From assembly GCA_016207825.1 (NCBI GenBank), contig JACQZI010000026.1, forward strand, positions 1 to 41,557: DNA of 41,557 bases. Reading direction: 5' to 3'. The translations under genes were made by a program, and so were the position numbers. The stretch comes from Planctomycetota bacterium (lineage in GTDB: Bacteria; Planctomycetota; MHYJ01; JACQXL01; JACQZI01). The notes beneath the pieces were generated by a model. It saw nothing but the letters and a program-made list of their open reading frames with translations, was not told the origin of the DNA and did no database searches. Below, in pieces: positions 27,536 to 41,557 of this stretch; positions within the stretch are counted from its first letter, which is position 1; each line of letters begins with the position of its first letter.

Positions 27536-27738
27536 GTATGTAGGCTTATTATAGACCTCTTTTATCTCAAATCCGTTTATATTAATATTTAATCGTAGAA
27601 ATAGAACTTAAAGGAAAATGCTGGGACGGCTCTGCCTGGCGTATCTCAAGAATACATCCCCTCATGAATCCTGCTGTTAGCTTTCCCCCTAACACCAATA
27701 AATACAAGCTGTTATAAAGAGGGGGGCTACCCCTACAC

Positions 27739-27892
27739 CCTTGTATTAGTATTCCTACACTCTGCTAACCTAAGGCCTTAACCTGGCTAACCTAACTCCT
27801 ACACCTGGCTAACCTAAGGCATACACCTTGCTAACCTAACCCATTAACCTCGATAACCTAACTCCTGCACCTTGATAATCTTACCTAATACA
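27739..27892. repeat. 22-bp periodic tandem repeat array 1
   Basis: Seven successive 22-bp units fill the interval. The best five (27761-27870) share GCTAACCTAA or GATAACCTAA at the same offset and end in TACAC, TTAAC or TGCAC. Units alternate between CTAACTCCTACAC and CTAAGGC-type second halves. Read on the minus strand each unit contains GGTTAGC. There are no spacers, so it is not CRISPR. The array lies between nfo and coaB. Confidence 0.8.
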
Positions 27893-28214
27893 CCCCCTAA
27901 AAAATAAAGCTCCCTGCCTTGCCCTATTCCCTATGGGGGCTGTCTTGCAAAGGTTTGCCCGGATGATGGAGGGGGTAGCCCGGAACATTCCCCCTATGTT
28001 CGCCCTTATGGTTCAGAATGACACTTTTAATATGGCCTAAATGGGAATTTTATGAACAGGCTCTTTAGTTCCAACATCTTATATAACAAAGAGTTATCGT
28101 TTGTTTCCATGCTTGACTATGTGCCATTCTATACTATCCCCGAACTCTTAGGACGTCGCTTCGCTACGCATTAAGACACCGGAACAGTTAAACGACTGTT
28201 CAGACTTGTTAAAG

Positions 28215-40644: not shown

Positions 40645-40914
40645 TTAATATTTTATTCTCTTAAATACCCGTTTACCCCTCAATCCTTCCACGCCTTTTT
40701 TCCGGTAGGCATCCAGCCATTTCCAGACACTGCGTTCGCTTGTCTTTAATTGCTGAGCAATCTTAGCAACCGTCCAGCCATAATTAGACCAGTAAACTGC
40801 CTGCCCCCGGCGGCGCGCCCGCATGTTTCTTTTGCTTAAGGCATCCTTTAAAAATCCGTCTAAAGATTTGGATTCTTCAGGCGAAAGCTTGATAAAAAAG
40901 TTGCAACGGGACAT
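40645..40914 (-). CDS. Small IS630-like helix-turn-helix protein
   Basis: The 89-aa protein resembles the N-terminal DNA-binding part of IS630-family transposases: RRGQAVYWSNYGWTVAKIAQ, then QQLKTSERSVWKWLDAYRKKGVEGL. It ends in KRVFKRIKY with no DDE catalytic domain anywhere downstream, where bioF starts 4 bp later. A strong GGGAGG ribosome site precedes ATG 40914. It is either a remnant of a transposase or a domesticated small regulator. The close coupling to bioF and the inverted repeat just upstream favour a regulatory role, but that is inference. Confidence 0.7.
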   Translation of the reverse strand: MSRCNFFIKLSPEESKSLDGFLKDALSKRNMRARRRGQAVYWSNYGWTVAKIAQQLKTSERSVWKWLDAYRKKGVEGLRGKRVFKRIKY

Positions 40915-41155: not shown

Positions 41156-41421
41156 GGGGGTAGGGTAGGGATGTAGCTATTCGGTTAATGAAGCATAGCC
41201 CCTGAAGCAATCAACCGTTACCACTAAAATAATGGTTCGTTGCCTGACCATAAATAATTCGTTGCCATTAAAATAATCAGGCATTACCCGCGAAATAATG
41301 ACGCATAGCCTTTGATGGAATTAAGAATTGCCATTGAAAGAATGGCTTGTTACCTTCGCATAAATAAATCGTTACCCTTAAAATTCTTTAATCCAAACGG
41401 AGGTAGGGTAGGGGCAACCCT
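41156..41421. repeat. Ten-unit 22-bp repeat array 2 with G-rich flanks
   Basis: Ten uninterrupted 22-bp units run from 41172 to 41391. All start with a T.RCY-type heptamer: TGTAGCT, CATAGCC, CGTTACC, CGTTGCC, CGTTGCC, CATTACC, CATAGCC, AATTGCC, TGTTACC, CGTTACC. Units 2 and 7, 3 and 8, 4 and 9 are more alike than neighbours, giving a 110-bp super-period. The array is flanked by GGGGGTAGGGTAGGG (41156-41170) and GGTAGGGTAGGGG (41402-41414). Confidence 0.85.
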
Positions 41422-41472
41422 GCTTTGTTGAATAATTATTTTGAGGAGTGATATAAAAGTTAAAGTAAAACA

Positions 41473-41535
41473 GGGTCATAGACGAAAATACTTGTAGAGA
41501 ACAGTATTTTTATAAGGAGAACCCGTCTATGACCC
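41473..41535 (+). promoter_or_regulatory. Leader hairpin covering a start codon
   Basis: GGGTCATAGACG (41473-41484) is a perfect 12-bp complement of CGTCTATGACCC (41524-41535). The right arm contains the ATG (41529-41531) of the last gene, and the AAGGAG ribosome site (41514-41519) lies in the loop. As RNA it would occlude the start codon; as DNA it could be an operator or element end. Confidence 0.6.
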
Positions 41536-41557
41536 CTGATTTATTATGTGAATCGGC
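41529..41557 (+). CDS. 5' end of an unidentified gene, cut by the window
   Basis: ATG at 41529 follows AAGGAG with 9-bp spacing and reads MTPDLLCES to the end of the window. The frame is open, but only nine codons are visible, so the product cannot be named. The inverted repeat around the ATG and the dense repeats upstream raise the possibility of a mobile-element gene; this is speculative. Confidence 0.4.

What the first reader, a model, noticed from the sequence alone, without database searches (positions are those of the whole stretch)
41156..41421. Ten exact 22-bp units with a 110-bp super-period and telomere-like G-rich flanks
Ten contiguous units of exactly 22 bp, with no indels, share a T.RCC-type heptamer at the same phase while the rest varies. 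Units 2/7, 3/8, 4/9 and 5/10 match at about 14-16 of 22, so a five-unit block was duplicated. Strict 22-bp phasing, two helical turns, despite heavy divergence suggests selection on spacing, as in a multi-site protein-binding scaffold or a structured RNA, rather than a fresh slippage repeat. Both sides carry GGTAGGGTAGGG. I know of no named element of this form.
Basis: partly seen in the sequence, partly recalled or inferred. Interest (0 to 1): 0.75.

Follow-up and report, generated by a model that had tools for sequence, protein, structure and literature searches.

The report
Genome-wide phase-locked 22-bp repeat arrays
The odd repeat is one of roughly a hundred short non-coding repeat blocks scattered through this uncultured bacterium: their DNA letters are mostly unrelated, yet every block repeats at exactly 22 letters with almost no slips, so spacing rather than sequence is what has been preserved.

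Summary
Window 41172-41391 holds ten contiguous 22-bp units with a 110-bp super-period (lag 22: 0.46, lag 110: 0.53, shuffles 0.26). A second 22-bp array with an unrelated unit lies at 27744-27885. About 877 kb of the same Planctomycetota genome ("Ca. Brocadiia") gave 26-34 such arrays, suggesting roughly 90-110 per genome. All are intergenic. Other non-codon periods gave 0-1. Unit sequences are mostly unrelated between arrays, and no motif is shared in phase. Array cores show 4 phase shifts against 2049 substitutions, whereas ordinary intergenic DNA of this genus shows 43 indels against 219. A few arrays exist as 90-97% identical dispersed copies with sharp edges. Array ends are enriched in G/C runs. 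Arrays are abundant in 4 of 9 genomes of the order and absent, by one pattern, from 383 other phylum genomes. Coding, a shared RNA fold, curvature, CRISPR adaptation, TIGR-Tas, reverse transcription and Y1/REP explanations were tested and not supported. Best reading: dispersed non-coding elements selected for two-helical-turn phasing, probably protein-assembly scaffolds; the partner is unknown and scaffold function is inferred. The window array ends in an IS-like end at about 41421.

The parts
41156..41170 (+). left G-rich end block, GGGGGTAGGGTAGGG
   Evidence: sequence; same block punctuates other arrays of the genome, e.g. C18, C21, C38
41172..41391 (.). array of ten 22-bp units without indel; 110-bp (five-unit) super-period
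41194..41303 (.). units 2-6, first five-unit block
   Evidence: lag-110 match with 41304-41391; 75% identity 41186-41274 vs 41296-41384
41304..41391 (.). units 7-10, duplicated block, incomplete
41398..41413 (+). right G-rich end block, GGAGGTAGGGTAGGGG
41421..41557 (.). IS-like element end (TGCTTTGTTGAATAATTATTTTG...), not part of the array; flanks it
   Evidence: identical 137-146 bp at ends of contigs C4, C9, C16 and C42 and in a G001 contig end, with unrelated sequence before it except in the C42/G001 pair
27721..27740 (+). G/C-rich end block of the second array, GGGGGGCTACCCCTACACCC
   Evidence: same block starts the related array L098:229
27744..27885 (.). second 22-bp array in the window, about 6 units, unit unrelated to the first
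   Evidence: TRF period 22/44
27886..27897 (.). C-rich end of the second array (ACACCCCC)
   Evidence: shared with L098 right end

Best explanation
The region is one member of a lineage-restricted class of dispersed, intergenic, non-coding elements of about 300 bp. Shown: each is typically 10-14 direct repeats of exactly 22 bp; ends are enriched in G/C runs; unit sequence is particular to the array or a small copy family; copies spread as discrete blocks; the 22-bp register resists indels while the sequence drifts. Inferred: the register is kept because a DNA-binding protein, or a set of paralogous proteins with the same assembly geometry, loads at two-helical-turn steps to form a nucleoprotein scaffold. 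Arrays would re-homogenise by whole-unit block duplication, so their sequences diverge from one another while the spacing is held.
For: Period 22 is unique among non-codon periods: 34/29/26 runs at three settings in 877 kb of G000, 6 in G001, 4 in G003, with other periods 0-1; TRF agrees. 2049 substitutions against 4 phase shifts in 382 units, versus 219 against 43 in intergenic and 8900 against 197 in ORF alignments of this genus. 60 substitutions and no indel between dispersed copies. Unit identity is almost flat with distance, 0.66 at offset 1 and 0.615 at offset 8. Columns vary more unevenly than under uniform rates (mean z 1.45, 14 of 33 arrays above 2), as expected of constrained sites. 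No array in the refined count exceeds 14 units. No gene-orientation bias and no common neighbour.
Against: No motif shared across arrays, so a single sequence-specific protein cannot serve all of them. No binding protein identified. No 11-bp sub-period (lag 11 = 0.253) and no predicted curvature excess. Array cores were chosen by in-phase similarity, which lowers the indel count somewhat. No expression or binding data.
Confidence: 0.4

Rival explanations
1. A duplication process with a built-in 22-nt ruler (an integrase, nuclease or polymerase acting at G-rich sites) makes tandem 22-bp copies of whatever sequence is present; the arrays have no function.
For: Same period in unrelated sequences; G/C runs at ends; whole-unit block duplications of 44, 66, 88 and 110 bp.
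Against: A ruler at birth does not explain why indels are then avoided while units diverge to about 63% identity, uneven column constraint, or an upper size near 14 units. Two ruler-type candidates do not fit the distribution: Cas1 is absent from G003, which has the most matches, and reverse transcriptase is absent from G000, G003 and G007.
Confidence: 0.2
2. Non-autonomous mobile elements (MITE-like) in which the 22-bp repeats are stacked transposase- or integrase-binding sites; different families follow different transposases.
For: Discrete 90-97% identical dispersed copies with sharp edges, one truncated; locus turnover between congeneric genomes; patchy presence in the order. Works like a bacterial minisatellite-bearing MITE (PMC4596501).
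Against: No common terminal inverted repeat or target duplication seen; most arrays have no detected relative in the sample; no carrier transposon with such ends found. Y1 transposase distribution does not match.
Confidence: 0.2
3. Recognition depends on self-similarity rather than on any sequence: units pair or are compared with each other through double-helix homology in helical register, as proposed for homology sensing in Neurospora (from memory).
For: Explains unrelated sequences with fixed spacing and preserved unit-to-unit similarity.
Against: No precedent known to me in bacteria; uneven column conservation is not predicted; no data.
Confidence: 0.07
4. Transcribed guide or small-RNA arrays (CRISPR- or TIGR-like).
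For: Tandem arrays with conserved and variable positions.
Against: No repeat/spacer alternation; no Nop-domain protein in any of the 9 order genomes; Cas1 absent from array-rich G003; no common RNA fold or strand preference.
Confidence: 0.05

Closest known systems
BrickBuilt MITE of Porphyromonas gingivalis (PMC4596501)
   Same: Intergenic tandem repeat of 23 nt without spacers, leader and tail blocks, about 19 dispersed copies, imperfect units
   Different: One consensus shared by all copies with IS5-type terminal inverted repeats; here most arrays have unrelated units, the same exact 22-bp period, and no common TIR
Plasmid and phage iteron arrays
   Same: Direct repeats of about 17-22 bp at helical spacing with replicon-specific sequence (general knowledge); viral contigs pulled by a 22-bp pattern show short arrays of this look
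   Different: Usually one cluster of a few near-identical repeats next to a rep gene; here of the order of a hundred chromosomal intergenic arrays of 10-14 diverged units with no common neighbour gene
TIGR arrays (PMC12045711)
   Same: Tandem array of short units, locus-specific repeats
   Different: 36-nt units with two 9-nt spacers beside a Nop-domain tas gene; neither is present here
Intergenic TAACTGA direct repeats of Beggiatoaceae (PMC4679880)
   Same: Abundant dispersed intergenic direct repeats of unknown function
   Different: One fixed heptamer, mostly just upstream of start codons; here sequence varies and gene orientation is unbiased
Par centromeres such as parC/ParR (from memory)
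   Same: Arrays of about 10-20 bp repeats as nucleoprotein scaffolds, with plasmid-specific sequence
   Different: One per replicon beside par genes; no par-gene association found here

Membership tests
BrickBuilt-type minisatellite MITE | Common consensus unit across copies | tested here: not met
   Median best-rotation similarity between arrays 0.29, permuted null 0.28; only about 7 small families of 2-3 copies
BrickBuilt-type minisatellite MITE | Common terminal inverted repeats matching an IS | tested here: inconclusive
   Ends enriched in G/C runs but orientation mixed; no shared TIR or target duplication seen by inspection
BrickBuilt-type minisatellite MITE | Dispersed intergenic copies | tested here: met
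   Copy pairs with sharp borders, all intergenic
CRISPR array | Identical repeats alternating with unrelated spacers | tested here: not met
   Units are contiguous and similar along their length
CRISPR array | Cas1 present where arrays are | tested here: not met
   Cas1 in G000 and G006 only; absent from G003, the genome with most matches
TIGR-Tas | Nop-domain Tas protein | tested here: not met
   PF01798 in 0 of 9 genomes of the order; controls positive
Iteron origin | Adjacent rep initiator gene, replicon function | tested here: inconclusive
   30 proteins near arrays scanned: housekeeping or unknown, no rep family; replication not testable
REP/RAYT or IS200-IS605 derived repeats | Y1 transposase co-occurs; palindromic units | tested here: not met
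   Y1 in 8 of 9 genomes without relation to arrays; no common fold
DGR, retron or telomerase-like RT system | Reverse transcriptase | tested here: not met
   PF00078 absent from G000, G003, G007; 55% transitions, no A-specific bias
Protein-coding tandem repeat | Open frame through the array | tested here: not met
   Longest open fraction 0.67, permuted null 0.66; fully open 5 of 37, null 18%
Phased DNA-binding scaffold | Indel-free helical register under divergence | tested here: met
Phased DNA-binding scaffold | Cognate protein bound at each unit | not testable with these tools
   needs pulldown or ChIP

The most novel reading that the evidence does not exclude
A bacterial chromosome-wide system whose information is purely geometric: about a hundred arrays with arbitrary sequence, recognised through self-similarity at two helical turns (by a phase-reading protein or by direct helix-helix homology) and used to organise or mark the chromosome.
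Probability: 0.1. Interest if true: 0.95.

Novelty: categorically new. Interest (0 to 1): 0.8.

Why it matters
Known bacterial repeat families are defined by sequence. Here the conserved property is a period, shared by dozens of mostly unrelated intergenic sequences and protected from indels even more strictly than in ORF alignments of the same genus. That implies either a phase-reading machine or a length ruler not described in the papers I could search. Presence or absence within one order (4 of 9 genomes, split within one family) makes a comparative search for the responsible gene directly feasible. The literature check covered open-access PMC papers only.

Tried and rejected
Shared in-phase motif: information 4.88 against reversed null 4.79 +/- 0.08. 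11-bp sub-period: lag 11 = 0.253; the harmonic at 11 in column variability (z 3.5) is largely expected from neighbour smoothness. Uniform RNA or ssDNA fold (a few arrays, such as L129 and L107, are palindromic). Micro-inversion as the source of GGG/CCC swaps: reverse-complement swaps no commoner than reversed or complemented controls. Coding. Promoter or terminator role from gene orientation: 23 co-directional, 5 convergent, 4 divergent against 253, 40, 45 background. Rfam: no match. Clean empty sites between G000 and G001: synteny too broken at the loci held. A viral search with the 22-bp pattern returned short iteron-like arrays, circular by selection (at least 120 stretches against 94 for 23-bp spacing).

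Full report
Observation. The window array is as described: ten 22-bp units at 41172-41391 with a five-unit super-period and GGTAGGGTAGGG on both sides. Lag-22 and lag-110 matches lie far above dinucleotide shuffles. The right side ends in an IS-like terminus near 41421; the same 137-146 bp recurs at the ends of contigs C4, C9, C16 and C42 and of one G001 contig, so it is a collapsed mobile-element end and not part of the array.

It is not alone. A second array with a different unit and its own G/C-rich ends lies at 27744-27885. The genome (G000, 2.89 Mb; the nearest public relative found is a "Candidatus Brocadiia" MAG, DeMMO3_52) was sampled over about 877 kb. A period scan gave 34, 29 and 26 runs at period 22 at three settings, and 0-1 at each of eleven other periods between 16 and 32 that are not multiples of 3. 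TRF independently returned periods 22, 44, 66, 88 and 110 for most arrays, the rest being mainly multiples of 3. In the stretches there are about 12 in 388 kb, so roughly 90-110 per genome; this is an extrapolation. The arrays were also found in G001 (same genus) and G003 (another family of the order). With the pattern (GGTA N18) repeated, matches are 53, 40, 276 and 132 in G000, G001, G003 and G007, and 0-3 in the five other genomes of the order; a stricter form gave 0-2 in 383 further Planctomycetota. That pattern sees only arrays with a conserved GGTA, so absence elsewhere is strong but not complete.

What is conserved. Consensus units of different arrays are no more similar than permuted ones (median 0.29 against 0.28), except for about seven small families, and no in-phase motif is shared. 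Yet in 382 core units there are 2049 substitutions from consensus and only 4 phase shifts. Alignments between G000 and G001 give 219 substitutions to 43 indels in intergenic DNA (1225 aligned bases) and 8900 to 197 in ORFs. Three pairs of dispersed copies differ by 60 substitutions and no indel over 814 bp. The within-array figure is helped by choosing arrays in phase; the between-copy figure much less so. Unit identity hardly falls with distance (0.66 to 0.615), and columns vary more unevenly than under uniform rates in 14 of 33 arrays, both pointing to constraint on each unit.

Anatomy. Refined counts are 5-14 units, 25 of 34 arrays between 10 and 14 (short arrays are under-sampled). G5 or C5 runs occur at 59% of array ends, 15% of intergenic windows and 19% of array interiors. 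All arrays are intergenic, without bias in the orientation of flanking genes, and neighbours are assorted housekeeping or unknown proteins. Copies move as blocks: L096/L102, L078/L074/L073 (the last truncated after four units), L098/window 27744 and L124/L131 share array and end block and then lose similarity abruptly. Loci turn over quickly: the window 27744 array is missing at the G001 locus (L135), and beside rlmN both genomes carry an array but with different units.

Mechanism. Shown: period lock, indel avoidance, sequence independence, dispersal, lineage restriction. Inferred: the lock reflects a phase-reading protein assembly at two helical turns. Because no motif is shared, either several paralogous proteins with the same geometry are involved, or recognition is not of sequence. 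A length-ruler duplication process explains the common period but not the later indel avoidance and uneven constraint. A mobile-element reading explains dispersal and is compatible with the scaffold reading; common ends are lacking.

Known systems. TIGR-Tas, CRISPR adaptation, reverse-transcriptase systems and Y1/REP elements were tested by family presence across the order and do not match. The nearest described object is the BrickBuilt minisatellite MITE (PMC4596501), which has one consensus. Iterons and par centromeres work similarly in principle but are single-locus systems. I therefore rate the phenomenon as a new kind, with function open, limited by an open-access literature search and by the lack of any expression or binding data.

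Noticed in passing
window 41421-41557; L065:1-145; L071:1-140; L077:13109-13247; L084:18150-18286; L126:6852-6941: IS-like end TGCTTTGTTGAATAATTATTTTG (resembles IS903/IS5-type ends, from memory) with an internal inverted repeat CAGGGTCATAGACG...CGTCTATGACCCCTG; all six junctions carry a run of G about 6-12 bp before the element, suggesting a G-run target preference.
   Followed up: partly
window 40645-40914: Orphan 89-aa HTH_23 protein beside the array, preceded by an inverted repeat (TTAAGTTCAAGATTAA / AATCTTGAACTTAA); a similar CTTGAACTTAA stretch lies about 200 bp before the C18/C21 arrays.
   Followed up: partly
L131:1077-1132 and about 20 places in G000: Another dispersed repeat of about 56 bp (CACCCGATAATAGGGAGTCCCTGAATGGGG...) common to both congeneric genomes.
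   Followed up: no
L083, L086, L070, L087 right flanks: Recurrent TTATAAATCA(C)AAGATGATACAAAT-like stretch just outside several arrays.
   Followed up: no
L138:1-310 (G003): Near-identical young array of 14 units of ACCCCYACCCAGGGTGAAGATT at a contig end; the order member G003 has the most pattern matches.
   Followed up: no
L065:309-8962 (C42): Cluster of PAS/GAF histidine kinase, sigma-54 response regulator and MEDS sensory proteins on the contig sharing the IS end.
   Followed up: no
G000:C8:263558-264511: A Cas1 gene (605-aa open frame) in this genome; no CRISPR analysis done.
   Followed up: no
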